This document shows, one piece after another, positions 1,407 to 38,257 of a stretch of DNA of 38,780 nt. Both the position numbers and the translations under genes were made by a program. The stretch's first letter is position 1, and every line of letters begins with the position of its first letter. The notes below the pieces were generated by a model. It saw only the letters and a program-made list of their open reading frames with translations, made no database searches and was not told where the DNA came from. Source of the DNA: Bacteroidales bacterium (GTDB taxonomy: Bacteria; Bacteroidota; Bacteroidia; Bacteroidales; VadinHA17); the NCBI GenBank assembly GCA_025358455.1, contig JANYJP010000017.1, positions 1-38,780 of the forward strand, in the 5' to 3' direction.

Positions 1407-2600
1407 TTATCTCTTAAATAATACCTGATCATAAAATGCAGTTAGCTTCACACTTTCATAATCCCACGAAAGAACAGTAAGAACTCTGTTATATGCATAT
1501 TCTGACATTTTTGCCCTCAATTCATTATTATCTATCAGTTCCGTTATTTTAACAGCGAAGTCAACAGTGTCGCCACATTTAGCGTATAAAGATGCGTCCT
1601 GAGCTGAAAATCTGCCTTCTTTTAAATCGTATTGAACAATGGGCTTTTTCAAAGCCATATATTCCATAATCTTATTCATTGTTGAAAGATTATTCATTTC
1701 TGTTGGCTTATCCGGATTGACACAAATATCAGATGTGTTTAGTATTGCTACCAGAAGGTCATCAGGAACTCTTCCATAAAAATCAACATACTCATTAAGC
1801 TTCATTAAAGTTGTCAGCTGTTTTAATTTCTCAAGATCTGTTCCCCCTCCTATTATGGCGAATTGAATATCACTTCGTGTTTTTACAATAAAACTGATAC
1901 TTTCAAGCAAAAGATCAATTCCTTCCTGTTCTCCGATAACGCCAACATAACCAACCAGATATTTCCTACCTCTTTTATAATGATTATCAGGCGGAAGCAA
2001 TTTTAGACGATCCAGTTTGGGACCACTCCGAATGACCTGTATTTTGTCCTGCGGCATCTTCCCTCTCAAAACTGCTATTTCTTTGTATGACTCATTAGTT
2101 GCAATACTATAATTCGCAGTTGCAAATGTAAGTCTCTCACACATAAGCATTACTTTATAGAAAAATCCCTTTTTATTATATTTTGCGATATACAATTCAG
2201 GGTTAATATCATGATGATCAAATACATATTTTACGCCAAATATTTTAAACCAGATTGCAACTAAAAAAATCAGATCAGGAGGATTACAACCATGGATAAC
2301 ATGAAACCTCTTTTTAAAAAAGATTTTCCAGCTGAGAATGAACTCCCAGAACAGAGCAACGCTATATTCCAGCAAATATCCTGCTGCTCCTCTTGCTTCG
2401 AGTGGAAGCGAATGCCGATAGATCTCAATACTATCAATAACTTCGTATGAAGCAGTGTATCCTTTCATCTTTGGACAAATGATACTGACCTTAGCTCCAT
2501 TATCTTTTAGAGTGTTAGCTTCCTGCCATACCCTTCTGTCGAACGGGACCGGAAGATTCTCCACGATAATCAGAACATGCTTATTTGTAAAAGGCAACAT
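1407..2600 (-). CDS. Glycosyltransferase family 4 (GT-B), last gene of the operon
   Basis: 397 aa, normal length for GT4. The N-terminal half opens with a Rossmann strand and the 'PFDRRVWQEANTL' signature found in exopolysaccharide GT4 enzymes of the WbuB-like group, followed by 'GCNPPDL' and 'FDHHDINPE'. The C-terminal half has the nucleotide-sugar binding region: 'LVGYVGVIGEQEGIDLLLES' and a late 'IMEYMALKKPIVQYD' in the place of the E-x7-E motif. It would transfer a sugar from a nucleotide donor to a lipid-linked repeat unit on the cytoplasmic face of the membrane. It starts 2 bp after the dehydrogenase stop, so it is translated with it. It converges on the left-edge gene across 46 bp with no clear terminator hairpin. 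Donor and acceptor cannot be told from sequence. Confidence 0.9.
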   Translation of the reverse strand: MLPFTNKHVLIIVENLPVPFDRRVWQEANTLKDNGAKVSIICPKMKGYTASYEVIDSIEIYRHSLPLEARGAAGYLLEYSVALFWEFILSWKIFFKKRFHVIHGCNPPDLIFLVAIWFKIFGVKYVFDHHDINPELYIAKYNKKGFFYKVMLMCERLTFATANYSIATNESYKEIAVLRGKMPQDKIQVIRSGPKLDRLKLLPPDNHYKRGRKYLVGYVGVIGEQEGIDLLLESISFIVKTRSDIQFAIIGGGTDLEKLKQLTTLMKLNEYVDFYGRVPDDLLVAILNTSDICVNPDKPTEMNNLSTMNKIMEYMALKKPIVQYDLKEGRFSAQDASLYAKCGDTVDFAVKITELIDNNELRAKMSEYAYNRVLTVLSWDYESVKLTAFYDQVLFKR

Positions 2601-2602
2601 AT

Positions 2603-3910
2603 TTACCAGTTAATACCGAAATAATTATTTTTATCCAATAATGACTCATCAAGGCGGACAAAGTCCACTATTATTTTCCCTTTTAACTTATCAACTAACC
2701 TCAAGAATTCAGGTTCCTTTGTGTTAATAATGATCACGTCACAATCATTTATTAACTGTTCAGAATCGTTGGTAAGAAGAGTTGCCAGGTGAGGAATTCT
2801 TGAATCAATATATTCCTTGTTTGTTCCGGTCAGCACTGCAAGGTTAATGTTCTTGTCATAAATTGTGATATCACACCCCTTTCCCAGGAGAGCTTCTATT
2901 ACAGTAACGGTAGGGCTATTTCTGAGGTCGTCGGTTCCTGCCTTAAAACTTAATCCCAGAAACCCGAGTTTCTTATTCCAGTACTTATAAATGAACTTAA
3001 CAGCCCGTTGAATCTGAATTTCATTTGTTTTATTAATACTGTCAATTACAGGTACTTCTACATACATATCATGAGCTAAAGTCTGCAATCCTTTCAGATC
3101 TTTTGGCAGGCATGAACCACCGAAAGCAAAACCTGGTTTGAAATAATATGGAGAGATATTCAGATGCTTGTCTTTGCAGAAAATATCCATTACTTTAAAA
3201 GAATCAACCCCGACTTCTGTGCAAATATTACCAATCTCGTTCGCGAAGGAAATTTTAAGCGCGTGATAAGTATTGTTGATATATTTCATTATTTCAGCAA
3301 TCTTCAGTTCGGTTATAATAATTTCCGCCGGAAGTTGTTTATAAAGCTCTGCGATTGTTTCTGCTGCCTTCCGGTTGTCTGAACCAATAAGTGTAAGTGG
3401 AGGATTGAAATAGTCATGAACTGCAGTACCCTCACGCAGAAACTCAGGATTGTCAACTATAGCAAAATCAACATTTCTTTTTTTCTCTGATATTTTTTCA
3501 ACGATGTCGGCAAATTTATCGCAGGTACCAGGCATTATAGTAGACCTTATTGCAATAATATGAAAGCTGGTTTTCTTTTTCAATGCCTCCCCAATGTTTT
3601 CTGCCACCCTGAAAATGTATTGTAAGTCAAGATGTCCTTTGTCGGTACTTGGAGTACCGACAGCCACTATAGAAATATCCGAATTGATAACGGCTGATAT
3701 ACCATCTGTGGTAGCGCTGATTCTTCCGGCAGCTCTCTCACCGGCTATAATCTCGTTTACGTCTTTCTCAATTATTGTAGCTTTACCGGCGTTAATCTGT
3801 CCGACTTTAGTCTCACTGATATCTACACCTATTACGTTATGTCCGTTTTTAGCCAGACATCCAAGACTCACGCATCCAACGTATCCGAGTCCGAAAATAC
3901 TTATTCCCAT
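2603..3910 (-). CDS. Nucleotide-sugar dehydrogenase, GDP-mannose 6-dehydrogenase (AlgD-like)
   Basis: 435 aa, the length of AlgD. This family performs the four-electron oxidation of a GDP- or UDP-hexose to the uronate with NAD. The N-terminal NAD fold has GLGYVG at residues 7-12 and V-D ending strand 2. 'NPEFLREGTA' (154-163) is the substrate/catalytic loop, and the catalytic thiol is Cys267 in 'GFAFGGSCLPKD'. 'SCLPKD' rather than the 'SCFPKD' usual in UDP-glucose dehydrogenases, the near-identical spacing of the catalytic Cys, and an AlgD-like start (ISIFGLGYVG) favour GDP-mannose as substrate and GDP-mannuronate as product. The stop of the lyase gene lies 1 bp before this start. Together with the lyase it suggests a uronate in the polymer. 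The exact substrate is inferred, since UDP-linked relatives share most motifs. Confidence 0.88.
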   Translation of the reverse strand: MGISIFGLGYVGCVSLGCLAKNGHNVIGVDISETKVGQINAGKATIIEKDVNEIIAGERAAGRISATTDGISAVINSDISIVAVGTPSTDKGHLDLQYIFRVAENIGEALKKKTSFHIIAIRSTIMPGTCDKFADIVEKISEKKRNVDFAIVDNPEFLREGTAVHDYFNPPLTLIGSDNRKAAETIAELYKQLPAEIIITELKIAEIMKYINNTYHALKISFANEIGNICTEVGVDSFKVMDIFCKDKHLNISPYYFKPGFAFGGSCLPKDLKGLQTLAHDMYVEVPVIDSINKTNEIQIQRAVKFIYKYWNKKLGFLGLSFKAGTDDLRNSPTVTVIEALLGKGCDITIYDKNINLAVLTGTNKEYIDSRIPHLATLLTNDSEQLINDCDVIIINTKEPEFLRLVDKLKGKIIVDFVRLDESLLDKNNYFGINW

Positions 3911-3911
3911 A

Positions 3912-5843
3912 TTAATTAATTTTTATTAAAAATCTAAAAGTCGTTGTTTTTTCGATCTGTGTTTTACAATAAATTACATTTGTTGCTTCTTTTTTCATAA
4001 ATGACGAAGAGTACCATCCAAGCACCTGGGGATTAACCTGGCCGCTTAGCACCATCGGATTTAGCTTTTTATCCAAGTGTAATTCTGATTTCCTACCCGA
4101 TCCGCCGGAAAGCTGAAATAATCCTGGATCTAATTGATTTATAATAATATCAGGATGAAGATGAAACGGAATCTCAACCTGTACTATTCCTTTTTTTAAA
4201 ACATTAATTGTATCCAGAATCTGAAATTCATTTTTATTCTTATCAAAGACGATTTCCCGTACGTGTCGCACATTCTCATTCTTGTATCCGTCATGTGTTG
4301 CTCTTACAGATTCAGCAGAATCCGTTAATTCCACATTGATCACATGTGTTTTATAATGCCTTGTCCATAGCGTTGGTCCGCCGTTCAATGCCTGATCCTT
4401 GCCGTTAATCCTGACTGTATTATGCGCCAAAGTGCCAATAAAATAGTGACGCCACCCAGGTTCTGTATGATAGGTATAGGTTCCGGAATCAATAAATACC
4501 GGATGACCGTCAAGATGCAATATAAATGAGAGGGCATCCGCATGTCCATGTGCAGCTATAGAAAGATACCCAAGAGGAGCCGCATCAAAGTGCATATAAA
4601 TTTCACCTGTGGCTTCCTTCTTTCTGAAAATATAATGACCTTCATTTTTGTAGAATTTTGAGATCATATTATTCTCAATATCCGGGATTGACTCATAATC
4701 AGCTCTTCCAGTCTCTCCAAATAAGAATTGGTTTTTAAGATCATATCCGTTGCTTCTGTATTTGAGTGACGGATCTTTAAATATTACTGCACCTGATGTC
4801 AGCAATGATTTGAAATTGTTAAATTTCTTATCTGTGTCAATAATGAAGCATTTTCCATCATCTTCATCACCATAATTCGGAAAATCTCCGTTACAGTCAA
4901 GGAATTCATTTACATACCTGAAGATCTTATGAAGATTTTCCTCGTATTTCTTTGAAAAGGGCCGGTTAGTTTTTTCCCCGACTATGAAGCAAAGAAGGAA
5001 AAAGTCGGTTATGAATTGTATATACTCTGCTGCTTCTTCGCGATTTATGCCGGATGAGTGTTGCCTGTTCATTTCTTCTTCAAGCCCTTTACGGGAATAC
5101 TTAAGCCATTTTTCAGTTTCTTTAAACTTCCATAATGATGACGCAATAAACAGCCCTGCATATTCAGATATCAGGTGATTGTTAGCGGAAGAATACTTTG
5201 ACGGATTTTTATATGAATACCTGCAATGCTGATAGATTGACGGCAGCCATCTGGTCTCTACAAAATTTTTAAAATCAGGTCTTTGTGCAATTAATTTTTC
5301 AACATCAAGTATTTTCCAACTCAGGTACCAGTTTATTATCCTGATATTTACCTCAATATTGCTGTACCAGTTTATCCCCAGAAGATATGGATTCTGATCT
5401 ATCCAGGAATTAAGAATTCCGGTAAATTGAGTCAGGTATATGTCAGATCCTGTATTTTTATAATTCAGCGCTATTTGTGGCAAAAACTGCAAACGGTTTA
5501 TTTCCCAAACAGCCTTTGCAGAAAGGCCCGGATTGGAATTTATATTCAATGCCTTTGAGAATTTTAAAGGATAGCATTTATCTGAAAATATATCTCTGTG
5601 CCAGTTTATATCATGATTGGTATAATTGAAATCCTTTCCAAAAACATTTATCATTTCCGGGTAGAGGCTCCTGTTATTAAGCCTGAAACCCTGGAAATAG
5701 TTCCTGGTTATTACTGATTGCTGCTTCAGAGACTTGCCAACAGAAAAATATTGTTCATACTTTTTCTGCACCAATTGCTTTATCCGGTAAGGGAACTCTG
5801 CAAAAGTGAATGTTTTTAGTCTGTTGAGATACCAGCTTGTCAT
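3912..5843 (-). CDS. Heparinase II/III-family polysaccharide lyase
   Basis: 643 aa. The N-terminal half is a helical toroid with 'NNHLISEYAG' (Asn221-His223), matching the Asn/His pair of heparinase II and alginate lyase families (PL12/15/17/21). The C-terminal half is a beta-sandwich with 'AHGHADALSF' (His432, His434), then 'DSGTYTYHTEPGWRHYF' and 'AHNTVRING', the usual active-site segment. Such lyases split uronate-containing polymers by beta-elimination. In exopolysaccharide operons they trim or release the chain, or clear misplaced polymer. No convincing signal peptide is seen ('MTSWYLNRLKTFTFAEFPYR'), which is usual for this operon-encoded subgroup. The start ATG overlaps the oxidoreductase stop as ATGA, so the pair is translationally coupled. 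The substrate is unknown; the AlgD-like neighbour makes a mannuronate-like polymer plausible. Confidence 0.85.
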   Translation of the reverse strand: MTSWYLNRLKTFTFAEFPYRIKQLVQKKYEQYFSVGKSLKQQSVITRNYFQGFRLNNRSLYPEMINVFGKDFNYTNHDINWHRDIFSDKCYPLKFSKALNINSNPGLSAKAVWEINRLQFLPQIALNYKNTGSDIYLTQFTGILNSWIDQNPYLLGINWYSNIEVNIRIINWYLSWKILDVEKLIAQRPDFKNFVETRWLPSIYQHCRYSYKNPSKYSSANNHLISEYAGLFIASSLWKFKETEKWLKYSRKGLEEEMNRQHSSGINREEAAEYIQFITDFFLLCFIVGEKTNRPFSKKYEENLHKIFRYVNEFLDCNGDFPNYGDEDDGKCFIIDTDKKFNNFKSLLTSGAVIFKDPSLKYRSNGYDLKNQFLFGETGRADYESIPDIENNMISKFYKNEGHYIFRKKEATGEIYMHFDAAPLGYLSIAAHGHADALSFILHLDGHPVFIDSGTYTYHTEPGWRHYFIGTLAHNTVRINGKDQALNGGPTLWTRHYKTHVINVELTDSAESVRATHDGYKNENVRHVREIVFDKNKNEFQILDTINVLKKGIVQVEIPFHLHPDIIINQLDPGLFQLSGGSGRKSELHLDKKLNPMVLSGQVNPQVLGWYSSSFMKKEATNVIYCKTQIEKTTTFRFLIKIN

Positions 5844-7990
5844 CTGATATCCTTCAGATCTACTTTATAACTCTTTTTTGTTCTGATACTTTCAACTGCT
5901 AAAATGGCGGTCAGAGTATTCAACAGAAGTGAATCCAGTGCGATTGGCATAATTCCTGATTTAACAGATACGGCCAGTACTTCCATTTCTTTTTGCTGAC
6001 CTTTATCCATCATCAGGAATTTCTTTTTTGAGGTTTTCCCGTTTTTAAAGATGACAGCTGATTTAAAATTATCAAATTCAATACTGGTTCTGTAACCTGT
6101 AACAGTAATCTTTTCTTTTGAATAATTTTTATCGCCATCGGCCAGATATGCAATTACGCAAACCGATCCATTATTGAATTTAACGGAAATAAAAGTATTA
6201 TCCTGTTCCGGCATGCCCTGTACTGCAGTTGAGTTCGCATATACTTCAACCGGGTCAGCATCGAGCAGGTATTGAAGGGTATCGATGAAATGACACACCT
6301 CCCCTATTATCCGGCCGCCCTGTTCAGGCGACTGATACCATTTGTCCATCGGAATGAATCCAGCATTAACCTGATAATAAATAGAATACGGAAAATCTTT
6401 CTTTAACTGATCTTTAAGGTATTTTATAGAAGAAGAATAACGTCTGTTATAACCAACCATCAATATATTATTCTCAGTTTGGAAGCAATCTGAGATTGAT
6501 TTAAGTTCATCAATTGAAATGGCAAGAGGTTTCTCAACATAAACATTTTTATTGCTCTTCAGAGCATCTGTAACCATTTTCGCATGTTGATTATGTCTGG
6601 TAGCGACAAGAATGGTGTTAATGTCCTTATCAGTAAGCAATTCCTTATAATCAGTAGTGGCATAATTAAAACCGAATTTCCCCGCTTTATCTTTTGCGTT
6701 TATACCGGTTGCGGTAGCAATTCCAACCATTTCTGCTTTGCCTTTTAAGAAAGGGAGTAGCATAGTGCTGGCATAATTTCCGGCTCCTATTAATCCTAAC
6801 TTTACAGGCCCTGTACTGGTTTCCTTCCCTGATTGAATTTTAATACGCCGGGTGGTTATGTCGATATTTGCATCATATTTCAGAATCACACCCAGGTATT
6901 CTTCTTTTGCTTCTTTGATTTCTAAAAAAGCTCTGTCGGCTTCCTTAAAATCAAACTCATGTGTAATAAGTTTGGAGAAATTTATTTTCCCATCCTTTAA
7001 AAGCTGCAACACTGACATCATATTTCGCTGTTCGGTCCAGCGAACATATCCAATTGGGTAATCGACTCCTTTTTCCTCATAAACAGGATCGTATCTGCCC
7101 GGCCCGTATGATCTTGAAAACCTGAAGTCCAGTTCTTTATGATAATATAAGTCCCAGGGCAAATCCATTTTTGTTATGCCAATATCAACGATTTTTCCTT
7201 TGTCTCTTGCAATTTTTCCTGCCAGTATTATGGGATCATTACTTGATGTACCAGTGGTAATTATAACCGAGTCGCATCCGGCTCCATTGGTAATGGAATT
7301 AATTTCCTCCTCAAAATTTGTTCTGTCAGCAACCTCGGTAAAAAAAGCTCCGTTTTCAGCTGCTATATCGCATTTACGTTTCGATATATCAAAACCAAAA
7401 GCTCTGCAGCCGTTGGCCTGAATGATCTGAATAAGTATCTGTCCCAGAAGACCTAAGCCAATCACTGCTACATTTTCACCAATCTGAGACTGAGTCTGTC
7501 TGAATCCCTGCATAGCTATTGATGCAATAGTGGTAAAAGATGCATGTTTCAGATCCACACCCCCGGGCACTTTAACACAAAGGTTTTTAGGAACAAAATT
7601 GACCTCGGAATGATTCGCGTATCCTGCGCCCCCGCAGGCTACTATATCTCCCATTTTGAAATCATCAACGCCCTTCCCAACCTCTACAACTTCACCAACG
7701 AGGCTGTATCCTAACGGAGAAAGTGAATCAAGTTTGTTCATTACCTTCCTGTAAGTTGCAACCGGCCCCAATTGTGAAAGAGTACTAAGTACTTCTTTAA
7801 CCTGTTCAGGTTTTTTCTTTGCCATTTGCAAATAACTCATATCTGCATTTTTTAACTTCATCATCTCAGTCCCGACACTTACTGCAGAATAAAGAGTTTT
7901 TACCAGCACTCCGCCGGCTTTACAGGCGGGTACAGGCAAATCTTCTATCGTTAATGAGTTTTTCTTAATGTTTTGTACCAGCTGATTCAT
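5840..7990 (-). CDS. Two-domain oxidoreductase: zinc-type alcohol dehydrogenase (MDR) fused to Gfo/Idh/MocA
   Basis: 716 aa, a fusion of two dehydrogenases. Residues 1-~375 are a medium-chain dehydrogenase/reductase: 'LGYSLVGEVVEVG' near 93-105 and the Rossmann GLGLLG at 178-183. The usual catalytic Cys/His zinc site is not evident. Residues ~392-716 are a Gfo/Idh/MocA domain: 'KLGLIGAGNYAS' begins its Rossmann fold and 'YVEKPLA' (EKP at 486-488) is the family catalytic lysine motif. The fusion is common in bacterial exopolysaccharide operons beside heparinase-type lyases, where it is thought to modify a sugar or its nucleotide derivative; the reaction is not established. Its ATG lies 26 bp inside the end of the preceding glycosyltransferase, and its stop overlaps the lyase start, so three genes are coupled. 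Confidence 0.88.
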   Translation of the reverse strand: MNQLVQNIKKNSLTIEDLPVPACKAGGVLVKTLYSAVSVGTEMMKLKNADMSYLQMAKKKPEQVKEVLSTLSQLGPVATYRKVMNKLDSLSPLGYSLVGEVVEVGKGVDDFKMGDIVACGGAGYANHSEVNFVPKNLCVKVPGGVDLKHASFTTIASIAMQGFRQTQSQIGENVAVIGLGLLGQILIQIIQANGCRAFGFDISKRKCDIAAENGAFFTEVADRTNFEEEINSITNGAGCDSVIITTGTSSNDPIILAGKIARDKGKIVDIGITKMDLPWDLYYHKELDFRFSRSYGPGRYDPVYEEKGVDYPIGYVRWTEQRNMMSVLQLLKDGKINFSKLITHEFDFKEADRAFLEIKEAKEEYLGVILKYDANIDITTRRIKIQSGKETSTGPVKLGLIGAGNYASTMLLPFLKGKAEMVGIATATGINAKDKAGKFGFNYATTDYKELLTDKDINTILVATRHNQHAKMVTDALKSNKNVYVEKPLAISIDELKSISDCFQTENNILMVGYNRRYSSSIKYLKDQLKKDFPYSIYYQVNAGFIPMDKWYQSPEQGGRIIGEVCHFIDTLQYLLDADPVEVYANSTAVQGMPEQDNTFISVKFNNGSVCVIAYLADGDKNYSKEKITVTGYRTSIEFDNFKSAVIFKNGKTSKKKFLMMDKGQQKEMEVLAVSVKSGIMPIALDSLLLNTLTAILAVESIRTKKSYKVDLKDIR

Positions 7991-9050
7991 TGAAAAATCT
8001 ATTTAATTGTAAACTAAATCCATCAAACATTTTATCTAAGGTTGCTTCTTCCCGATAAACTTTCCTGGCATTAGAAGAGAAGGCAACCCTTTTTTTATCG
8101 TCAAAAAGCAGATCGCTGATCATTTGCTTCAATTCCTTAGAATCCTTAGCAATAAGAGAATTAGAGCCATTCCTGAGGTAAAAAGCTTCCGGCCCATGAT
8201 TAACATCCATTGTCAAAACCGGGAGCCCCCAGAAAAATGCTTCAATAATTCCTAAACCAAGTGCCCCGGGGACGCAATAGAGATCTGCCATTGAGAATAT
8301 TTCAGCCATTTTCAGCTTTTCGTAAACCGGACCCAGGTAATAAATGTTTTTTATACCTTTTATTGAGCTCTTTAGATCATCACTTAAATCCGGACCAACA
8401 ATAACCCATCCAACATCCGGAGAATTTTTATATTCGTTAATAAATATTTCGCTTAATACTTCAATTTTTTTCCTGCCCTGCAAACGGCCGGTCGTCAGAA
8501 TTATCCTGGGTGAATTGATTTTATATCGTGTTTTGAGCTGTGTCTTTGTCTCCTGAATATTCATTTGTTGCATATCCAGGGTATTGTTTGCGAAAGTAAT
8601 CATGTGATGAAATCTCTTCCACAGTTTAGCTTTTTCAGCAGGAGAGTAAAGTATTATTCCGTCAAAAGAAAAATATGTCAGATTATACATAATATTTCTC
8701 CACATCTGATCTTTTTGTTTATCAATACCATGCCCGTAGAAAATTATCGGAATATTAAGAGCTTTCGTTCTCAGTACTGAAGCTGTATAAAAAAGATATC
8801 CGGGATCACTTTTAAATAAAATGTTAATTACAGCATCGATTTTTTTTTCTTTCAGTACCCTGCTATAATTTGTTAAGTTCATAGGGATCCCATCTATAAA
8901 ATTAAAGCTGCACTCATTATTCGGATCACTTATATGCCTGTACCAAATAATCAGATTATATCCCCTGTGCTCCAGAAAATCACTGAGCTTATTAAAGATA
9001 GGCACTTTATAAAAAAGCATGTCAGGATACAATAGCAAAATATTTTTCAT
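7965..9050 (-). CDS. Glycosyltransferase (GT4-like, GT-B fold)
   Basis: About 361 aa from the Met at 9050. A longer frame begins at 9071, but the 9050 ATG overlaps the acetyltransferase stop as ATGA and has GGA about 8 bases upstream, and it gives the natural start 'MKNILLLYPDMLFYKVPIF'. The N-terminal domain has 'FYGHGIDKQKDQMWRN'. The C-terminal domain has 'IILTTGRLQGRKKIEVLSE' and the E-x7-E type segment 'GLGIIEAFFWGLPVLTMDV'. The family transfers sugars from nucleotide donors to lipid-linked acceptors in the cytoplasm. The end overlaps the next gene by 26 bp. Donor and linkage are unknown. Confidence 0.85.
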   Translation of the reverse strand: MKNILLLYPDMLFYKVPIFNKLSDFLEHRGYNLIIWYRHISDPNNECSFNFIDGIPMNLTNYSRVLKEKKIDAVINILFKSDPGYLFYTASVLRTKALNIPIIFYGHGIDKQKDQMWRNIMYNLTYFSFDGIILYSPAEKAKLWKRFHHMITFANNTLDMQQMNIQETKTQLKTRYKINSPRIILTTGRLQGRKKIEVLSEIFINEYKNSPDVGWVIVGPDLSDDLKSSIKGIKNIYYLGPVYEKLKMAEIFSMADLYCVPGALGLGIIEAFFWGLPVLTMDVNHGPEAFYLRNGSNSLIAKDSKELKQMISDLLFDDKKRVAFSSNARKVYREEATLDKMFDGFSLQLNRFFNESAGTKH

Positions 9051-9616: not shown

Positions 9617-9688
9617 ATAGCAGATTTGAAATTGGTTTTTATTGAAAGGTTACGCTTCATAGAGTTATTAAATATCTTATTTTCACAA

Positions 9689-10465: not shown

Positions 10466-10491
10466 ATTCTAAACGGTGACTTAATCTCTGT

Positions 10492-13477: not shown

Positions 13478-13540
13478 ACGGTTAAATCTAATTAATCAAA
13501 AAAACTTTTCATATATAAAATATCATGCATAGAATTATTA

Positions 13541-14851: not shown

Positions 14852-14933
14852 ATTGTATCTTGAAAATTTAGTTTAAACAGATTATATTATTAAGAGTTGC
14901 TGTATTAATGAATTGAAAATTATGATTGAAAAA

Positions 14934-16190: not shown

Positions 16191-16196
16191 AAGAAT

Positions 16197-18822: not shown

Positions 18823-18877
18823 ACATTTTAATTTTATTTGTAAAAAATTCCGGTTGGATGTTTGTTTAGACTTATCA

Positions 18878-19600: not shown

Positions 19601-19617
19601 ATAAAAGTTTAATTAAA

Positions 19618-28679: not shown

Positions 28680-28701
28680 TTGCCACTTACCTAATTAGAA
28701 T

Positions 28702-31700: not shown

Positions 31701-34700
31701 CGAAAACTGAAAATACAACAGGATGACGGTTGAATAGTATCTCAATACTCCTTTTAAAAACGTCCAGGTTAAGTTTGCCTGTTAAATGGTAGGTAAAGGG
31801 GATGTTATATGCAGGATTTGAAGAATTAAACTGCGAATATATCCATATCCCTTTCTGACTGGCAGATAATGGCAGATTTGTAAGTCTGGACGCGCGTACC
31901 GTTTCTGAAGAAGCTGGTTGACCAGGTTGATCATTCTTAATTATTGAGCTAAGTTTATTAATTGTCGGGTTCTCATAAAATGATTTTAATGAAACCGTAA
32001 AATTCAATTCTTCCTTTATCCTTGTTGTAATCTGCAATGCGAGAAGAGATTGTCCTCCAAGCTCGAAGAAATTTTCATCAAGACCGATCTCGGAAATACC
32101 TGTCATCGATTTCCAGATATTTAGGATCACCCTTGTATTTTTTTCAATTGGCGTAGTATCCGACAAAGCCTTTTCAGCTGAATAGGCTTTCTCATTGACT
32201 TGACCAGAATCCATTATTCCGGAAGATGCATTTACTTTAATATCATTAACACGGGGTAACTCAAAATCTATCCAATGGCGTTTCTTTTCAAAAGGATATG
32301 TCGGGAGACTTATTTTATAAGCAGTTTTATCCTCGCGTAAAAGATTGAAATTAATGTTTCTGCCTATAATATACATATGCCCCAGAGAAGACAATAACTT
32401 AGCCTGTTCATTAACATTATCGGGTTTACCCAAAGTGGAAATTATTGCTTTTTTATTTTCAACATCAATATTTTGTCTGACCAAAGAACTTAAATGAGTA
32501 TTTGGACCAACCTCAAGAAATATTACATCCTCATTTTTTGAAATAGAGGATATCCCTTTACGAAACAGGACCGGATTTCTTAATTGCTTTGACCAGTAGT
32601 CTGCTGAAGTAGCCTGTTCTTTTGTGATGAATTCTCCTGTCAGACATGAGATAAACGGCTTAACAGGTTCATTTAACCTAAACTTTTTAACATACTCTTT
32701 AAACTCCGGTAATATCGGTTCACATGATTCTGAATGGAAAGCATGTGAGGTGTTAAGAGGAATATACTGAATATTATTTTTATCGAGTAAAGCCGTTACC
32801 TTGTCGGTGTTCTCAGATTTGAATGATATAGAACAAAGGTTAGGGGCATTATCGGCAGCAATTTCAAAAAATGAATTATCAAGGCTCCTGAGCTGATCAA
32901 TATCTGACATTACCGCCATCATTTTTCCGGGCTTCATACTTTGCATCAGCTGCCCGCGTTTGATAACAATCAGAAGTGCCGTTTTAAGGTCAAAAACACC
33001 GGCTAAGCAAGCAGCTGCATATTCACCTATACTGTGACCTATCAGATACTTTGGTCTGATTTCAAACTGCTCAAATACTTTTGAAAGTGCATATTCAATA
33101 ATAAACAGAGCCGGCTGAGTTATGGCAGTGTTAGCAAGTTTCTTTTCAGCATCCTCAATATCAGAACTTTCAAATAATAATGCTTTAAGATCTGCCCCGG
33201 TTTCAGATTTTACCACGGCAAAACACTCATCTAATATTTCTCTGAATCCCTGATTACTTTCGTATAAATCTTTACCCATTGAGATATACTGGGCGCCCTG
33301 CCCGGGGAACATAAAAGCAATATCAGATATCAGATTGTCAGTTTTACCGCTCTTGAAAACGCTTTTGTCTGAAAATATTTCTTCAGGGTTTGAGGAAACA
33401 TAAAAACCACGGTAACGCATATGGTTTCTTCCTGTAGCTAATGTAAATGCAACATTATGAATATCAGTGCCGGGATTGGTCCTCAGGTAATCCATAAGGT
33501 CAATTTTCCTTCTACCCAGGGAGGTCTCGGTTTTGCCTGATAAAATCATTAGTTCGGGATAAACCGATGTTGAATTTTCTGTTCTCTGCTGCAAGGGTGG
33601 TTCTTCAAGAATTACATGAGAATTTGTTCCACCAATTCCAAATGAACTTACTCCCATTATTAATGGTTTGTCATCAGTCCATTCTGTGAGTTCCTTCTGG
33701 ATATAAAACGGGGAATCTTCAAAGTCAATATGAGGATTCGGTTCCGTGAAATGCAATGTGGCAGGGATTTTTTTATAATACGCTATCAAACAAGCTTTTA
33801 TAAACGAAGCTACTCCGGAAGCCACATCAGTATGACCAATATTGCTTTTTACTGATCCGATGCCGCAAAATTGCTTTTTATTTGTTTTAAGTGAAAAAGC
33901 CTTTTTCAATCCTGCCACTTCAATTGGGTCGCCAAGCTGGGTTCCTGTTCCATGGGTTTCAATATAACTGATTTCCTCAGGAGAAACTCCGGCAAATGAC
34001 TGGGCATTTATAACAACTTCAGCCTGACCATCTATGCTTGGTGCGGTATAACTTAATTTATTACTACCATCGTTATTAAGAGCCCAACCGTCAACCACGG
34101 CATAAATTATATCCCTGTCTCTGATGGCGTCATCAAGTCTTTTCAGAATTACAGCACCTACTCCATTGCTGAATACAGTCCCATTTGCCTGTGCATCAAA
34201 CGGACGGCAATAACCATCTGGTGAGTGGATTGCACCTTCCTGATAAATATAACCTGATTCCTGAGGCACCAAAATGCAAATGGCACCTGCCAGGCAAACA
34301 TCAGTGTTTAAATCATACAGACTCTGGCACGCCTGGGATATTGCAACCAATGAAGTAGAGCATGTAGTTTGTACATTTATTGCAGGTCCTTTAAGATTAA
34401 AATGATAAGCTGTTTTTGTAGGAATATATGATACGTCATTTGAAGTCATCATCTGAAAGGAGTCAGAGCGGCGTAACCGGATATAATTTTCATACCTGGC
34501 CGGATCTCTTAACACATTATTCAGGAGATAGGAATTTAAACTTCCTCCGGCAAATACGCCAATAGCTCCGGGGTAACTGACAGGGTCACAACCTGCATTT
34601 TCAAATGCTTCCCAGGCAGTTTCAAGCCATACCCTGTGCTGAGGATCAGTCATGGCAGCATCCCTTGGTATCATACTGAAAAATTCTGCATCGAATTTGT

Positions 34701-34914
34701 CAACATTATCCAGAATACCTCTAGCTTTAACGAAACCCGGATTATCCTTTATTTCATCGAATTGAAATTCAAATGGGGACAACTCTTCATCAGTGAAACG
34801 CTTTATAGTATCCTTTCCTTCAAGCAGATTATTCCAATACTCCTTAATGTTATTTGCACCAGGATACCTGCAAGCCATGCCTATTACAGCAATTTTTTTA
34901 TTATTCGATTTCAT
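28702..34914 (-). CDS. PKS-NRPS hybrid, KS-AT-ACP-C-A-T
   Basis: 2070 aa. KS (1-~430): active-site Cys185 in 'TTCSTSLVA', His321 in 'ETHGTGTQ', His361 in 'SNIGHTDV', so it is condensation-competent. AT (~540-840): Ser628 in 'GHSIGEY' and HAFH at 724-727, the malonyl-type signature. ACP: Ser956 in 'ELGGQSLLAL'. C: HHLVFDG at 1145. A: 'YTSGSTGKPKG', Asp1666 in 'FDVSVSEVF'; by-eye code D-V-S-L-L-G-Y-I-V-K, which I cannot assign. T: Ser2006, then a C-terminal tail ending in GEI. There is no KR, DH, ER or MT, so a beta-keto group should remain after the malonyl extension. No loading module precedes the KS, so the starter must come from elsewhere, perhaps the free carrier at 36004-36294. Next gene: the NRPS, 22 bp on. 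Confidence 0.95.
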   Translation of the reverse strand: MKSNNKKIAVIGMACRYPGANNIKEYWNNLLEGKDTIKRFTDEELSPFEFQFDEIKDNPGFVKARGILDNVDKFDAEFFSMIPRDAAMTDPQHRVWLETAWEAFENAGCDPVSYPGAIGVFAGGSLNSYLLNNVLRDPARYENYIRLRRSDSFQMMTSNDVSYIPTKTAYHFNLKGPAINVQTTCSTSLVAISQACQSLYDLNTDVCLAGAICILVPQESGYIYQEGAIHSPDGYCRPFDAQANGTVFSNGVGAVILKRLDDAIRDRDIIYAVVDGWALNNDGSNKLSYTAPSIDGQAEVVINAQSFAGVSPEEISYIETHGTGTQLGDPIEVAGLKKAFSLKTNKKQFCGIGSVKSNIGHTDVASGVASFIKACLIAYYKKIPATLHFTEPNPHIDFEDSPFYIQKELTEWTDDKPLIMGVSSFGIGGTNSHVILEEPPLQQRTENSTSVYPELMILSGKTETSLGRRKIDLMDYLRTNPGTDIHNVAFTLATGRNHMRYRGFYVSSNPEEIFSDKSVFKSGKTDNLISDIAFMFPGQGAQYISMGKDLYESNQGFREILDECFAVVKSETGADLKALLFESSDIEDAEKKLANTAITQPALFIIEYALSKVFEQFEIRPKYLIGHSIGEYAAACLAGVFDLKTALLIVIKRGQLMQSMKPGKMMAVMSDIDQLRSLDNSFFEIAADNAPNLCSISFKSENTDKVTALLDKNNIQYIPLNTSHAFHSESCEPILPEFKEYVKKFRLNEPVKPFISCLTGEFITKEQATSADYWSKQLRNPVLFRKGISSISKNEDVIFLEVGPNTHLSSLVRQNIDVENKKAIISTLGKPDNVNEQAKLLSSLGHMYIIGRNINFNLLREDKTAYKISLPTYPFEKKRHWIDFELPRVNDIKVNASSGIMDSGQVNEKAYSAEKALSDTTPIEKNTRVILNIWKSMTGISEIGLDENFFELGGQSLLALQITTRIKEELNFTVSLKSFYENPTINKLSSIIKNDQPGQPASSETVRASRLTNLPLSASQKGIWIYSQFNSSNPAYNIPFTYHLTGKLNLDVFKRSIEILFNRHPVVFSVFGQKDGIPFYDIVPKPVNINIIDYSNLNPEKSREKIYSFAGEDTRQVFDIATGPLFRLYLLKRNDSDFYFHATIHHLVFDGWSWNVFIKDFRKIYESLIYKRDANLEKIDFQYSDYSLWQETYDNAQSEEISKKFWSENLKDCSPKLNFPYDHQRKEIPTGFGEKEYFKITPAQTAFLRDLSKKENTTLFPTLLSSLAILLQKYSGENDICLGTAITDRPQTKLEKIFGMFINTTVIRLKIEDNDRFSSLLKNTRNAVIDAISHKDLPFEKLVEVSKTERTLNVNPIFQISMVWLNELAIPMDLDGIKGERVTLDKGISPFDMTIYMWDNGDYIEGEIEYNIDILERDSIIRLKDNFIKLLESIVENPNQSISDFDIISDNDKKILAEINNTGVAIPDILAQDFFEMQVQHNPSKTAIISGNKSLTYKELSDLSNQMAKHLLSLKVQPGDVVGICLERSIELVVSQLGILKAGCGFLPLDPLFPDDRVCNMIEDSGAKILITNNALKEKVRLLPSISLVIFDKDIDKIKRNSSLKPEIKIDTQSLAYIIYTSGSTGKPKGVKIHHHALVNLIQSMSKTPGVTKDDNFLAVGSPSFDVSVSEVFLPISNGATLVLAVTGEVNDGNSIIHLIERNNITIALATPSFWSILIANDWKGKENFRGLSGGEALTQNLIRQLLPRVREFHNYYGPTETTIVSTGCQITDPDGTIVIGKPLDNTQIYILNSNNQMLPIGVTGEVAIGGAGVSKGYINRPDLTAEKFINFDGNGIIYKTGDLGRLMTDGSVELFGRMDHQIKIRGYRIEPGEIENSLATLKGVTEAVVKANKFDESDTRLVAFLNVDADFKMTNAEIKDVLAKSLPSYMIPSFFQKSEGFPRLTNGKINKKALLFKTEVSDIIQDDHYNSLSETQKKLISIWEDSLKINNIKVNDNFFDLGGNSLLAISVMSKIKYAFNLELGLRVFFDSPKIKDLAETIDLSKNKKVDAKSYNLSKDNKYQIVNGEI

Positions 34915-34986
34915 TTCCTGAATCTGTGTTAAATATTATAGGACAGTAATTTTAATTTTTAAATTAAATTTTGTTTTTCTGTGTTA
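34915..34986. other. AT-rich spacer before the PKS-NRPS gene
   Basis: A 72-bp spacer between the PP-loop gene and the hybrid synthase. It contains a loose AT-only inverted repeat (about 34949-34975). It has no GC stem, so I do not call it a terminator. An AGGA lies right before the synthase ATG, too close to be a normal Shine-Dalgarno site. No -7 element that I trust. Confidence 0.3.
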
Positions 34987-35997
34987 TCAATTATGTTTTA
35001 TTTCCAGTTCCCTGTACGTGTATTCAATCTGGTCAACTGGTCTATCGTAAATTTTCTCTAATGCTCTTTCTCTGGCTATCTGTCCATTACGAATAAGGTG
35101 ACTTAATTCGAGTTCATAAGGACTATAGCCATATTTTTCATTATGTATATGGTTGTTAAATGCATTTATTATACAATTTGTGGAGCAGCCATCAACATCC
35201 TTCGGGATTTCCCAGCCCATTGGTAAAATCTCCTCAATTATTTCATTTTCAGTAATATCTTCCAATGTCAACAAATTAATATTATGCGGATAAAAACCTG
35301 ATTTAGTTATCAGAGAATCACTAATTTCAAAGTATCTGGATACTTCATCTCCAAGTTGCGATTTAAGTTTATCAAGGATAGGTTTCCTGGTATCTTTAAG
35401 GAATTCATAGTTGTTCTTATAATAAATGGTATTACAGGGAATCTGTCCGAGAGTAAAGCCTGCAAGAATGAACGGGATATCCTTTTCCAGTGCAAGCTTT
35501 AATGCAGTATTATTAACGATGGAAATGCATGAATTACAATTTGCAGAAATCCTGATCAATGTTCTGGGGTTATAGATAGTCTCAAGAGAGCTTAATCTGA
35601 ATAGACTTTTCATAAATTTATATGATGGCCTGTACGTTATCTGATCAACACCAAGTTTACTGACCACTTTCTCAATATTCCTGAAGGCTGTTGGAGAGAT
35701 AAAACCATTATCAAGAGTAAATGACAATACCTTAAGATTGTATTTTTCTACAGCCAGCTTAAGAGTATAGGTGCTGTCCTTCCCTCCGCTATAACAAAGA
35801 ATTGCATCATATTCAGATTTTCCTCTGGCCACATCAAACAAATTTTTGATCTCACCCCGGGCTTTATCAATTATCACTGAATCGGTCGAGCAAAGCAATT
35901 CATTATTGCAAATGTTGCATACCCCCTTTTCATCAAATTCAATCTTAGGAAAATTTTCGGACAGGATACACCTGGTGCACCGTTTAATATTTTTCAT
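34987..35997 (-). CDS. PP-loop ATPase, N-acetyl sugar amidotransferase-like (WbpG/PseA-type)
   Basis: 336 aa. The PP-loop SGGKDS at 70-75 marks an N-type ATP pyrophosphatase, which adenylates a substrate before attack by ammonia or a sulfur donor. Cys7, Cys10, Cys27 and Cys30 ('RCTRCIL', 'VCNICN') form a zinc ribbon as in the WbpG-like family, and a late 'LSHLIRNGQIARERALEKI' also fits it. Further cysteines occur in 'NCNSC' and 'GCSTNC'. WbpG partners (HisH/HisF-like glutaminase) are not in the window, so the donor could come from the neighbouring asparagine synthase homologue or it may not be ammonia at all; some standalone PP-loop enzymes transfer sulfur. It begins 6 bp after the carrier protein stop. 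I infer a tailoring or starter-forming step. Confidence 0.75.
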   Translation of the reverse strand: MKNIKRCTRCILSENFPKIEFDEKGVCNICNNELLCSTDSVIIDKARGEIKNLFDVARGKSEYDAILCYSGGKDSTYTLKLAVEKYNLKVLSFTLDNGFISPTAFRNIEKVVSKLGVDQITYRPSYKFMKSLFRLSSLETIYNPRTLIRISANCNSCISIVNNTALKLALEKDIPFILAGFTLGQIPCNTIYYKNNYEFLKDTRKPILDKLKSQLGDEVSRYFEISDSLITKSGFYPHNINLLTLEDITENEIIEEILPMGWEIPKDVDGCSTNCIINAFNNHIHNEKYGYSPYELELSHLIRNGQIARERALEKIYDRPVDQIEYTYRELEIKHN

Positions 35998-36003
35998 ATC
36001 AGA

Positions 36004-36294
36004 TCAATTGAAACGCTTGTTCTTATCAATAAAATCAACCAGTAGAAGAATGGAACCAAAATTCTGGCGGGTCATCTGGTCCACACTTACCTTGAAATTA
36101 AAGTTCTGTGTAATGAAAGTAGAAATTTCAATTAGCCCCATAGAGTCAATTATTCCAGTGTCGATAAGGGATTTATCCAATTCAATATCCTCTTTGTCAA
36201 CAAGGAATTGCCTGGAAACAAAATCCAGCAGTGAGTCTTTAATCTGCTTTTTAGTAATAATTTCTGTATTAATAATCTGGTTATTCATATTCAT
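36004..36294 (-). CDS. Free-standing acyl/peptidyl carrier protein
   Basis: 96 aa, the size of an ACP. Four-helix pattern with the phosphopantetheine serine Ser51 in 'DTGIIDSMGLIEI', followed by a helix-2 pattern 'LIEISTFITQNF'. It should be activated by the Sfp-type enzyme encoded further along. The ATG overlaps the end of the asparagine synthase gene by 14 bp; a second in-frame ATG six bases on (36288) is also possible. No acyl-ACP synthetase or A domain is adjacent to load it, so its cargo is unknown. Its place between an amidotransferase-like enzyme and a PP-loop enzyme suggests the cargo is modified while tethered. It could also be a D-alanyl-carrier-like protein unrelated to the PKS starter. 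Confidence 0.87.
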   Translation of the reverse strand: MNMNNQIINTEIITKKQIKDSLLDFVSRQFLVDKEDIELDKSLIDTGIIDSMGLIEISTFITQNFNFKVSVDQMTRQNFGSILLLVDFIDKNKRFN

Positions 36295-38257
36295 TTATTT
36301 TAACTGTAAGTAAATCGTTTGATAATGATGATTGCTTAGGATGTTTTGTCCAGTATTTTGCAATCTGGGTCGAAAGGATGAATGTGATAATCATATTATC
36401 CCGGTAACCTATAGAATCAGGAATTCCATTGCTGAATTTCTGCAGAAAACGACTGACCCACTTAGGATTAAAAATCTGATAATCTTTCAGAAGATGTTCG
36501 CTAAGAAAATATGCAGTGTTTTCCGTCGGTTTTCCATCAACTATAAAAGATCTTAAATCGGGAGACATATATGGTCGTTTTGGTCGGTTAATAATAGATT
36601 TTGGAATTTGATTTTTATAGCTGTTTTTCAATAGATATTTTTGGTTGAACCCTTTTAACTTATAGTCCTCGTTCATTGTAAATAACATATCGACTACCCT
36701 GTGATCTAAAAATGGATATCGTCCTTCAACACTGTGAGCTAGTGACATTCTGTCTCCCTGTGAAGATAACAGATAACCTGACAATAATGTTCGCATTTCC
36801 AGGTATTGATTTTTCTGAAGAAGGCTGAAACTGTCAAAGTTTCCGGGTAGCCATGGTTTAAGTTCCTTTATCAGACTGTTTTTGTCGAAACTGATATTGT
36901 AAGCCTTGTCAAAATAATTTTGAATAATGCTGTTATTATGAATCCTGATATTTAATGAAGCAAGACCATTATTAAATTCCCCCAGGAACCCTTCATAAAA
37001 CATTCTCATCATACCATACTGGCTTTCATCACTGTAATGACTTAAATGAGGATACAGCTTTTTAATTATCTGCGGCCTGATCTTTGATTCAGGGTATTTT
37101 GACCAGAAATTGAGAAGCTTTAATTCTTTGTAAGAATCATAACCCCATAGAACTTCATCTGCACCTTCACCTGTCAATACTACTTTAATACCATTCTCCC
37201 TGACTATTTTTGATAGAAGGAAAAGAGGCACCGGGGCTGTCCGGAATACCGGTCTTTCAAAGTGATACACAGCATCAGGGAAAGCCTGATCAACCTTTTT
37301 ATATGTAATATTTACGGAATGGTGTTCGGAGTTGATATGTTTTACCATATCCTGCTGGTACTCCGATTCATCATATTCTTTGTCTTCAAATGTGACAGAG
37401 AATGTCTTGAATTTATTTCTTGTGTGATTATTTATAAGATATAAAATAACTGAACTGTCGATTCCTCCGCTTAGATAAGCCCCAACAGGAACATCGCTCC
37501 GCAGCCTCAGTTTAACAGCATCGTCCATTAAGCTCTTGAATGCCTCCTCAGCTTCATTGTAAGATTTAAATACAGGTCCGGCATTCGAACCTATATCGTA
37601 GAATCGTTTTTCTTTAACTACTCTCCCTTCGCGATATATTGCAAAAGTTCCTCCGGGGAGAGAAGTAATGTCCTTATAAACAGTATGATCGCCAAACGTA
37701 TTCCACAACAGACAATGTTCATAAAGCATCTTGGGATCAAAATCTCTTTCATAACCAGGGATCTGATCAAATGATTTCATTTCACTTGAAAAGAATAAAT
37801 AATTTTTATGTTTCAGGATATAAAGTGGCCTTACACCAAATCTGTCGCGTGCAATAACAAGCTCTTTTTTTATCTTATTCCAGATTAATACGGCAAACTG
37901 ACCGTTAAACTTCTCGAAACATTCTTCTCCGTAAACCTCATATGCCTTAAGCAGGACTTCTGTATCGCATGTTGTCTGAAATTTTACTCCTTTGCTTTCA
38001 AGTTCAGCTTTAAGTTCAATATAATTATAAATTTCACCATTGAAGATAATGACATTTTCTTTAGTTGTCATAGGCTGGTCGCCTGTTGAAAGGTCAACAA
38101 TTGACAGCCGGGTCTGTCCAAGTGCAACTTCAGGCGACATATAATAACCCCATCCGTCGGGGCCCCGGTGTTCAAGTACAGACATCATATCATTTAATGT
38201 CCTGCTTCTGTTATTCTGATCATTATCAGAACCGTATATTCCAGCAATTCCGCACAT
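36281..38257 (-). CDS. asnB: Asparagine synthase (glutamine-hydrolysing) family, first gene of the block
   Basis: 658 aa. 'MCGIAGIYG' gives Cys2, so the glutaminase is intact (beta-lactam synthetases, a related branch, lose this Cys). 'EHRGPDGWG' and 'IFNGEIYNY' complete the glutaminase site. The synthetase half has SGGIDSS at 263-269, 'LTGEGADEVLWGYD' and 'VEGRYPFLDHR'. It would amidate an adenylated carboxylate using glutamine. It heads the thiotemplate genes and overlaps the carrier protein by 14 bp, which suggests a carboxylate carried by, or destined for, that carrier. It is diverged from the copy at 10492-12390, so the two probably act on different substrates. The start 'ATGTGCGG' is fixed by the Cys2 requirement. 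The promoter should lie in the 165-bp divergent region beyond it. Confidence 0.87.
   Translation of the reverse strand: MCGIAGIYGSDNDQNNRSRTLNDMMSVLEHRGPDGWGYYMSPEVALGQTRLSIVDLSTGDQPMTTKENVIIFNGEIYNYIELKAELESKGVKFQTTCDTEVLLKAYEVYGEECFEKFNGQFAVLIWNKIKKELVIARDRFGVRPLYILKHKNYLFFSSEMKSFDQIPGYERDFDPKMLYEHCLLWNTFGDHTVYKDITSLPGGTFAIYREGRVVKEKRFYDIGSNAGPVFKSYNEAEEAFKSLMDDAVKLRLRSDVPVGAYLSGGIDSSVILYLINNHTRNKFKTFSVTFEDKEYDESEYQQDMVKHINSEHHSVNITYKKVDQAFPDAVYHFERPVFRTAPVPLFLLSKIVRENGIKVVLTGEGADEVLWGYDSYKELKLLNFWSKYPESKIRPQIIKKLYPHLSHYSDESQYGMMRMFYEGFLGEFNNGLASLNIRIHNNSIIQNYFDKAYNISFDKNSLIKELKPWLPGNFDSFSLLQKNQYLEMRTLLSGYLLSSQGDRMSLAHSVEGRYPFLDHRVVDMLFTMNEDYKLKGFNQKYLLKNSYKNQIPKSIINRPKRPYMSPDLRSFIVDGKPTENTAYFLSEHLLKDYQIFNPKWVSRFLQKFSNGIPDSIGYRDNMIITFILSTQIAKYWTKHPKQSSLSNDLLTVKINEYE

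What the first reader, a model, noticed from the sequence alone, without database searches (positions are those of the whole stretch)
1407..38257. Hybrid PKS-NRPS line built into one co-directional run with a Wzx/Wzy exopolysaccharide locus
Twenty minus-strand genes with small gaps and several ATGA overlaps join a complete thiotemplate line (carrier, PKS-NRPS, NRPS, TE, PPTase) to a complete flippase/polymerase/glycosyltransferase set. No exporter, resistance or regulator gene accompanies the assembly line; the Wzx flippase is its next neighbour. This suggests that the peptide-polyketide may be added to, or exported with, a polysaccharide, which I do not know as a described system. The alternative is two adjacent but independent clusters.
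Basis: partly seen in the sequence, partly recalled or inferred. Interest (0 to 1): 0.75.

Follow-up and report, generated by a model that had tools for sequence, protein, structure and literature searches.

The report
Peptide-polyketide assembly line inside polysaccharide locus
A bacterium carries a small-molecule assembly line wired into the gene cluster for a surface sugar polymer, as an optional insert that a few of its close relatives also carry, which suggests that it decorates its coat with a made-to-order peptide.

Summary
In detail: 20 minus-strand genes, gaps of -26 to +166 nt, a PKS-NRPS line followed directly by flippase, putative polymerase and glycosyltransferases. Six of 62 genomes of the genus carry strong NRPS domains. 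In five the PPTase end of a line faces a MOP flippase within 6.3 kb (in three within 55 nt); the sixth is cut off there. NRPS-free G034, G022, G007 and G023 keep the same Wzx-GT4-Wzy-GT4 order (Wzx 69-76% identical where whole). So the line is an optional cassette in a mosaic polysaccharide locus, not an inseparable half. Similar unions exist elsewhere: G260 (NRPS between Wzy and glycosyltransferases in one tight run), a Roseovarius plasmid (NRPS 8 nt before a flippase) and, with sugar genes only, G342. Of 27 non-genus NRPS/PKS stretches of the order only G260 and G342 clearly have it; 7 have an MFS, MATE or C39-ABC transporter within 8 kb. Best reading: an R-group module that makes a peptidyl-polyketide substituent for the repeat unit, a modular version of carrier-borne acyl modules known in Flavobacterium O-antigen loci. 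The linkage is unproven. The 'WbuX-like' gene has the cysteine pattern of CtaC, a thioamide synthetase.

The parts
38423..38780 (+). start of a 334-aa membrane-anchored protein of unknown family ('END'), border gene of the locus; runs to 39427 of the contig
   Evidence: no Pfam hit for the G009 homologue; found in 16 of 62 genomes of the genus
36281..38257 (-). AsnB1, glutamine-dependent amidotransferase, first gene of the thiotemplate cassette
   Evidence: best PDB match a hydroxyamidotransferase, 7ylz; 68% identical gene in an NRPS/PKS locus of G098
36004..36294 (-). free-standing carrier protein with Ser in DSMG
   Evidence: 63% identical gene in G098
34987..35997 (-). PP-loop (AANH) enzyme with CxxC at 154/157 and Cys at 275: candidate CtaC-like thioamide synthetase rather than a sugar amidotransferase
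   Evidence: CtaC residues C154, C157, C284, D77, S78 from PMC6772006; 70% identical gene in G098
28702..34914 (-). hybrid PKS-NRPS, KS-AT-ACP-C-A-PCP
   Evidence: KS-AT 61-67% identical to lines of G009, G076, G018, G085 and 41% to G063
20583..28679 (-). NRPS, C-A-PCP-C-PCP-C-A-PCP; last A domain reads DAFWLGGTFK (valine-like by recalled code)
19618..20586 (-). TubC_N docking domain plus thioesterase
18878..19600 (-). phosphopantetheinyl transferase; end of the cassette
17443..18822 (-). Wzx-type MOP flippase, 12 predicted TM; 76% identical in NRPS-free G034
16197..17426 (-). GT4 glycosyltransferase (GT4d), follows Wzx in NRPS-free G034, G022, G007, G023 too
14934..16190 (-). putative Wzy polymerase
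   Evidence: weak; conserved operon place
13541..14851 (-). GT4 glycosyltransferase (GT4c)
12557..13477 (-). GT2 glycosyltransferase
10492..12390 (-). AsnB2, asparagine synthetase-like amidotransferase
9689..10465 (-). YdjC-like protein
9047..9616 (-). hexapeptide acyltransferase; conceivable acyl-to-sugar transferase (speculative)
7965..9071 (-). GT4 glycosyltransferase (GT4b)
5840..7990 (-). alcohol dehydrogenase-Gfo/Idh/MocA fusion
3912..5843 (-). heparinase II/III-like protein, 57% identical in NRPS-free G026
2603..3910 (-). UDP-glucose dehydrogenase family, 79% identical in NRPS-free G026
1407..2600 (-). GT4 glycosyltransferase (GT4a), 80% identical in NRPS-free G026; last gene of the run

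Best explanation
The genes 18878-38257 are a swappable cassette, set into a mosaic surface-polysaccharide locus, that builds a carrier-bound hybrid peptide-polyketide which decorates the polysaccharide repeat unit (an R-group module). Shown from sequence: a KS-AT-ACP plus C-A line with its motifs, its own PPTase and TE, and its place between the border gene and the Wzx flippase. Inferred: AsnB1 and the CtaC-like enzyme prepare an amide or thioamide on the free carrier protein; the PKS module adds one malonyl-type unit without reduction; the NRPS modules add A-selected residues, the last valine-like, and one residue loaded in trans (or none) at the A-less module; the TE, or the hexapeptide acyltransferase, moves the chain to an amino or hydroxyl group of the lipid-linked repeat; Wzx flips the decorated repeat and Wzy polymerises it. 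No step after chain release is shown.
For: A MOP flippase faces the PPTase end of a line in 5 of 6 carriers of the genus: gap 55 nt in G000, -4 in G018, 6 in G063, 4.6 kb in G076, 6.2 kb in G009; the sixth, G085, ends 0.3 kb into the PPTase gene. Wza lies on the same contig as a line end in 4 of 5 carriers searched; Wzc confirmed by Pfam for G063 and G076. G260 of another family has priming transferase, Wzc, a flippase-like protein, Wzy_C, three NRPS genes, PPTase and five glycosyltransferases on one strand with gaps of -14 to +27 nt. G342: GT4, GT2, GT4, acyltransferase, pyruvyltransferase, GT4, WecG, one opposite gene, then methyltransferase-ACP and PKS-NRPS. Roseovarius pelagicus plasmid: NRPS 8 nt before an oligosaccharide flippase, with Wza, Wzc and sugar genes around. 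Precedent: F. psychrophilum O-antigen loci hold an ACP, two ketoacyl synthases, a ketoreductase and an acyltransferase for a 3,5-dihydroxyhexanoyl R-group, with R-group genes differing between strains (PMC6519341, passages); N-(3-hydroxybutyryl)-alanyl sugar substituents are known (PMC3210612, passages). NRPS-free G034 has ACP-like, AsnB1-like (42%), NadE-like and acyl-ligase genes right after Wza-Wzc.
Against: No chemistry. No enzyme that would join the chain to a sugar is identified and no aminosugar pathway is seen among the 20 genes, so the acceptor is unknown. The halves recombine independently. At order level the association is a minority pattern (2 of 27 stretches, one of them without a flippase seen). 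In the genus it may descend from one insertion, so the 5 carriers are not 5 independent events. In this genome the priming transferase, Wza and Wzc are on another contig. In G009 and G076 several genes stand between PPTase and Wzx.
Confidence: 0.45

Rival explanations
1. Two independent clusters that share a variable chromosomal slot: the site beside the border gene is a recombination hot spot for surface and specialised-metabolite genes, and the line makes a free small molecule.
For: The polysaccharide half occurs alone at the same border gene in congeners; the Wzx tree does not follow the NRPS; slot content varies, e.g. 18 kb of mostly unannotated genes with an AsnB and a UGD-like gene in G023. 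One ancestral insertion could explain all carriers.
Against: A hot spot of one genus does not explain the recurrence in G260 and Roseovarius, nor the place of the NRPS between Wzy and glycosyltransferase genes in one tight run in G260. The window's run holds no other transporter, whereas 7 of 27 other stretches have an MFS, MATE or C39-ABC transporter within 8 kb.
Confidence: 0.27
2. The MOP flippase is the exporter of the NRPS product itself: the released (lipo)peptide is carried across the inner membrane by Wzx, as MATE transporters are proposed to carry precolibactin, and the polymer is a separate product or a matrix that retains it.
For: Wzx has the MOP fold; the G063/G018 flippase next to the PPTase occurs in only 3 of 62 genomes of the genus, two of them carriers; MATE genes stand next to NRPS in G326 and G416. 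The ClbM parallel is recalled; only a listing was seen.
Against: The window's Wzx is 69-76% identical to whole flippases of NRPS-free congeners in the same Wzx-GT4-Wzy-GT4 order, so it presumably serves a polysaccharide there. The G063 flippase has a homologue in NRPS-free G072 and is related to the Wzx profile.
Confidence: 0.18
3. The line makes a secreted glycosylated lipopeptide or surfactant, and the glycosyltransferases act on the small molecule rather than on a polymer.
For: Glycosyltransferases and line are co-directional; a KAS III gene (G009) and an AMP-ligase-like gene (G018) lie beside lines of congeners.
Against: Four GT4, one GT2, Wzx and a Wzy-like gene fit a polymer; much of the same set occurs without any NRPS.
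Confidence: 0.08

Closest known systems
Flavobacterium psychrophilum O-polysaccharide R-group genes (wfpC-wfpG) inside a wzy-bearing locus (PMC6519341, passages)
   Same: Carrier-protein-borne acyl group made by genes inside the polysaccharide locus; these genes vary between strains; acyl predicted to go to a sugar amine
   Different: There type II fatty-acid-like enzymes make a short acyl; here a modular type I PKS-NRPS line with PPTase and TE, and no assigned acyltransferase or aminosugar
Roseovarius pelagicus HL-MP18 plasmid unnamed2 NRPS-flippase region (NZ_CP106737.1)
   Same: NRPS with internal CxxC PP-loop domain and TE, 8 nt upstream of an oligosaccharide flippase, in a polysaccharide region
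   Different: No PKS domain in the Pfam scan; PP-loop enzyme is a domain inside the NRPS; sialic-acid-like sugar genes; function known here only from annotation
Closthioamide pathway, CtaC thioamide synthetase (PMC6772006, abstract and passages)
   Same: PP-loop AANH enzyme with CxxC plus third Cys, working on carrier-bound substrates
   Different: The CtaC sequence itself was not compared here; no sulphur chemistry shown here
AsnB amidotransferase plus ACP starter units of glutarimide polyketides and oxytetracycline (recalled)
   Same: AsnB-like enzyme beside a free ACP at the head of a PKS
   Different: Recalled, not tested; here a CtaC-like enzyme is added
Colibactin island with MATE exporter ClbM (recalled; listing)
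   Same: PKS-NRPS line next to a MOP-superfamily transporter
   Different: Recalled to have no polysaccharide polymerase or glycosyltransferase set

Membership tests
Wzx/Wzy-dependent polysaccharide locus | MOP-fold flippase | tested here: met
   AF2 pLDDT 82; Foldseek hits MATE, WzxE, MurJ, TM-scores 0.57-0.79 in the 50 rows shown
Wzx/Wzy-dependent polysaccharide locus | Wzy polymerase | tested here: inconclusive
   9 predicted TM; Wzy_C in 1 of 8 homologues; fold search empty with a poor model
Wzx/Wzy-dependent polysaccharide locus | priming sugar transferase, Wza and Wzc linked | tested here: not met
   On contig C2 in this genome; elsewhere priming transferase on a line's contig in 3 of 6 carriers (G009, G018, G063) and Wza in 4 of 5
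Modular PKS-NRPS assembly line | KS, AT, ACP, C, A, PCP, TE with core motifs, and PPTase | tested here: met
Modular PKS-NRPS assembly line | an A domain in every extension module | tested here: not met
   middle module of 20583-28679 is C-PCP
Carrier-borne R-group module of an O-antigen/EPS locus | thiotemplate genes inside the locus and variable between relatives | tested here: met
Carrier-borne R-group module of an O-antigen/EPS locus | acyl group found on the polymer | not testable with these tools
   needs polymer chemistry
CtaC-type NRP thioamide synthetase | PP-loop with CxxC and third Cys as in CtaC | tested here: met
   D74/S75, C154, C157, C275 against D77/S78, C154, C157, C284; the three Cys also in the G098, Streptomyces and Roseovarius NRPS-linked versions, not in a canonical sugar amidotransferase
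CtaC-type NRP thioamide synthetase | sequence kinship with CtaC and thioamide product | not tested
   no CtaC sequence was at hand in my calls
N-acetyl sugar amidotransferase (WbuX) | score above NCBIfam cut-off | tested here: not met
   149.9 bits against 203.2

The most novel reading that the evidence does not exclude
A class of surface polysaccharides whose repeat unit carries a template-built peptide-polyketide side chain (possibly with a thioamide or amide head), assembled by modular PKS-NRPS cassettes that are swapped like serotype genes and flipped and polymerised by Wzx/Wzy; it has arisen several times, in Bacteroidota and in Alphaproteobacteria.
Probability: 0.35. Interest if true: 0.85.

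Novelty: new variant of a known kind. Interest (0 to 1): 0.62.

Why it matters
If true, modular assembly lines are used to write chemical side chains on surface polymers, which would give glycans a programmable chemistry beyond sugars, and would explain a set of assembly lines whose product is not found free in the medium. It gives a testable rule: NRPS lines without an exporter of their own that end at a MOP flippase should yield polymer-bound products.

Tried and rejected
Wzy by fold: model too poor, no match. Flippase HMMs built from the genus found 0 of 23 outside stretches, which would have overstated the contrast; a topology scan then showed a flippase-like gene in G260. That gene has no Pfam or PDB sequence match and no hhalign match to the window's Wzx profile, so it is named from topology and place only. 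The Fisher value is therefore not used. Rows: one search kept 23 of 33 non-genus stretches (10 had flanks under 8 kb); 7 more had been dropped because the script's threshold missed their C domain; on recount 4 of these 7 have a flank of at least 8 kb and no flippase or glycosyltransferase hit, which gives 27. Read as polysaccharide-linked: G260 and G342; ambiguous and not counted: G356 (PGA_cap, GT4 and GT2 over 5 kb away) and G098 (scattered glycosyltransferases). In G342 no flippase or polymerase was identified; its first gene fragment gave no Pfam match worth the name. The reading of 34987-35997 as a sugar amidotransferase was set aside on Cys pattern, NRPS company and score. A search for that enzyme in 395 genomes of the phylum found only the own genome at E 1e-60, so its spread was not mapped. 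Literature: six searches for NRPS/PKS within Wzx/Wzy, capsule or EPS loci listed no paper that by title or start of abstract describes such a union; only listings were seen (25 of 29 and 6 of 7), and most subscription papers are not held. PMC13185837 (passages) concerns another thioamide route and is not used.
Full report
WHAT IS THERE. The window is bases 1-38780 of a 111,271-base contig (C83) of a draft genome of 3.42 Mb. From 38257 down to 1407 run 20 minus-strand genes with gaps of -26 to +166 nt. The first seven are thiotemplate genes, the other thirteen polysaccharide-type genes. Core motifs of AT, C, A, PCP and TE are found, the KS Cys by eye in the same output. The NRPS 20583-28679 has the order C-A-PCP-C-PCP-C-A-PCP, so one module must be loaded in trans or skipped. 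The PKS module shows no reductive domain in the Pfam scan. A-domain letters by anchored motifs are DVSLLGYIVK, DAFLLGVCIK and DAFWLGGTFK (the W read); the last is valine-like by the recalled Stachelhaus code, the others are unassigned.

THE FLANKS. On the right stands a divergent 334-aa membrane-anchored gene ('END', 38423-39427 of the contig), whose G009 homologue has no Pfam match, followed outward by a PD40/PKD protein, PorP/SprF and a CHU_C protein, a type IX secretion block. On the left the run ends at GT4a (1407). None of the 20 genes is a priming transferase, Wza or Wzc; this genome has such genes together on contig C2.

CARRIERS IN THE GENUS. Of 62 genomes of the genus, 7 match the Condensation domain, 6 of them strongly (G000, G009, G018, G063, G076, G085; G005 is marginal). 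On the border side, END lies beyond a line in 4 of 6: within 4 kb in G000, G009 and G076, and 16 kb away in G063 with sugar-type genes between (UDP-GlcNAc 2-epimerase, UGD-like, AsnB). In G018 a line is followed by an epimerase and then PD40, PorP and CHU_C genes, without END. On the other side the PPTase gene of a line end faces a MOP flippase in 5 of 6: gap 55 nt in G000, -4 in G018, 6 in G063, 4.6 kb in G076, 6.2 kb in G009. In G009 and G076 an acetyltransferase-like gene and others stand between, and the two ends of their loci are on different contigs. G085 is too fragmented. Wza lies on the same contig as a line end in 4 of 5 carriers searched. In G063 one contig holds Wza, Wzc, sugar genes, flippase, PPTase, TE, lines and END in that order. 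Other, distant NRPS genes of these genomes exist: G018 C173 (about 20 kb of flank), G009 C116 and G085 C780 (flanks of 2-3 kb) show no flippase-type gene, so not every NRPS of the genus is in such a locus.

THE SAME LOCUS WITHOUT THE LINE. NRPS-free G034, G022, G007 and G023 have Wzx, GT4d, Wzy, GT4c in the order of the window; Wzx is 69-76% identical where whole (in G007 it is split over two contigs at 63 and 74%), and END lies 0.4 to 18 kb from Wzx. NRPS-free G065 and G006 have END near a Wzx of 46 and 49%. NRPS-free G026 has the other end, heparinase-like, UGD and GT4a at 57, 79 and 80%. The window's Wzx is far closer to NRPS-free G034 (76%) than to carriers G009 and G076 (42-44%), while KS-AT parts of lines in four other carriers (G009, G076, G018, G085) are 61-67% identical to the window's and that of G063 41%. 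A tree of 10 Wzx needs at least 2 changes of the carrier label on starred branches. Line and sugar genes therefore assort: a cassette in a mosaic locus, with an evolutionary seam near 18822-18878.

OUTSIDE THE GENUS. Of 393 genomes of the order 32, the own one included, have a strong Condensation match. I fetched stretches of all 31 others, and of G042 for its PKS, and examined 27 NRPS or PKS stretches with at least 8 kb of flank on one side (23, 4 more). G260 (another family) has, on one strand with gaps of -14 to +27 nt, a priming transferase, an outer-membrane efflux protein, Wzc, a flippase-like protein, Wzy_C, three NRPS genes, PPTase and GT2, GT2, GT4, GT4, GT2 (the two GT4 by my own HMM). 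G342 (a third family) has GT4, GT2, GT4, acyltransferase, pyruvyltransferase, GT4 and WecG, then one opposite gene, a methyltransferase-ACP gene and a PKS-NRPS; no flippase was seen there. Of the 27, 7 have another transporter within 8 kb: MFS in G113, G155, G380 and G409, MATE in G326 and G416, a C39 ABC transporter in G407. So the union is a minority pattern in the order but has recurred. In another phylum, a plasmid of Roseovarius pelagicus has an NRPS with TE 8 nt before an oligosaccharide flippase, in a region with Wza, Wzc and sialic-acid-like sugar genes.

THE HEAD OF THE LINE. AsnB1, ACP and the PP-loop enzyme have counterparts at 68, 63 and 70% in the same order beside NRPS and PKS genes of G098, where no flippase hit and only scattered glycosyltransferases lie within 10-12 kb. 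The trio therefore belongs to the line. The PP-loop enzyme matches the N-acetyl sugar amidotransferase model below its cut-off (149.9 against 203.2 bits). It has CxxC at 154/157 and further Cys at 271 and 275, with the PP-loop at 70-75; the closthioamide enzyme CtaC has C154, C157, C284 and D77/S78 (PMC6772006, abstract and passages). CxxC plus the Cys aligned with 275 is shared by the Streptomyces and Roseovarius NRPS-fused versions and missing in a canonical sugar amidotransferase of the same plasmid. A thioamide or amide head group is a reasonable forecast, not a result.

MECHANISM. The closest described logic I found is the F. psychrophilum O-antigen locus, in which carrier-bound 3,5-dihydroxyhexanoyl is predicted to be made by genes inside the locus and moved to a sugar amine, and R-group genes differ between strains (PMC6519341, passages). 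Known polymers also carry N-(3-hydroxybutyryl)-alanyl groups (PMC3210612, passages), a small polyketide-peptide-like hybrid. NRPS-free G034 carries ACP-like, AsnB1-like, NadE-like and acyl-ligase genes directly after Wza-Wzc, a minimal version of the same idea in the same genus. I therefore favour an R-group module. In 4 of 4 lines that end in the TubC_N-type TE the last A domain is of the DAF(W)(L/I)GGTFK type, as if the transferred end were fixed; but the same type also ends 4 other proteins that have no TE after them in my reading (3 in G018 C91, 1 in G063), so this is only suggestive.

WEIGHT. For: recurrence in unrelated settings, cassette position, lack of another transporter in the run. 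Against: no chemistry, independent assortment, a possible single insertion in the genus, missing acyltransferase and acceptor sugar, minority pattern in the order. I put 0.45 on the R-group reading, 0.27 on independent neighbours, 0.18 on Wzx as plain exporter, 0.08 on a glycosylated small molecule. Six literature searches showed no description in their listings; that does not prove there is none.

Noticed in passing
38423-39427 of contig C83 (window 38423-38780): A 334-aa membrane-anchored protein without known family borders this locus; found in 16 of 62 genomes, with the PD40/PKD gene nearby on 12 of the 17 contigs that I read.
   Followed up: partly
L037:704-7412: PD40/PKD, PorP/SprF and CHU_C genes: a type IX secretion block kept beside the polysaccharide locus in many congeners.
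   Followed up: partly
L157:7360-12474 (NRPS-free G034): ACP-like, AsnB1-like (42%), NadE-like PP-loop enzyme and acyl-CoA ligase-like genes directly after Wza-Wzc: a minimal carrier-borne substituent module.
   Followed up: partly
L120/L121 (G260 C18 126118-150673): Single-strand run with NRPS genes between Wzy and glycosyltransferases; my HMM flags TE domains in two of the three NRPS genes, one confirmed by Pfam.
   Followed up: partly
L102:9436-17484: Roseovarius NRPS with a CxxC PP-loop domain before an A domain's C-terminal part, like an in-line tailoring domain.
   Followed up: partly
L132:2633-4411 (G326): MATE transporter fused to a histidine-kinase-like ATPase domain, 8 nt from an NRPS gene.
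   Followed up: no
L044 (G076 C35): G076 has a second copy of the END gene beside further NRPS and PKS genes.
   Followed up: no
59-1360: Protein with an swm repeat, read from the first bases of the contig; similar genes lie in or beside several polysaccharide loci of the genus.
   Followed up: no
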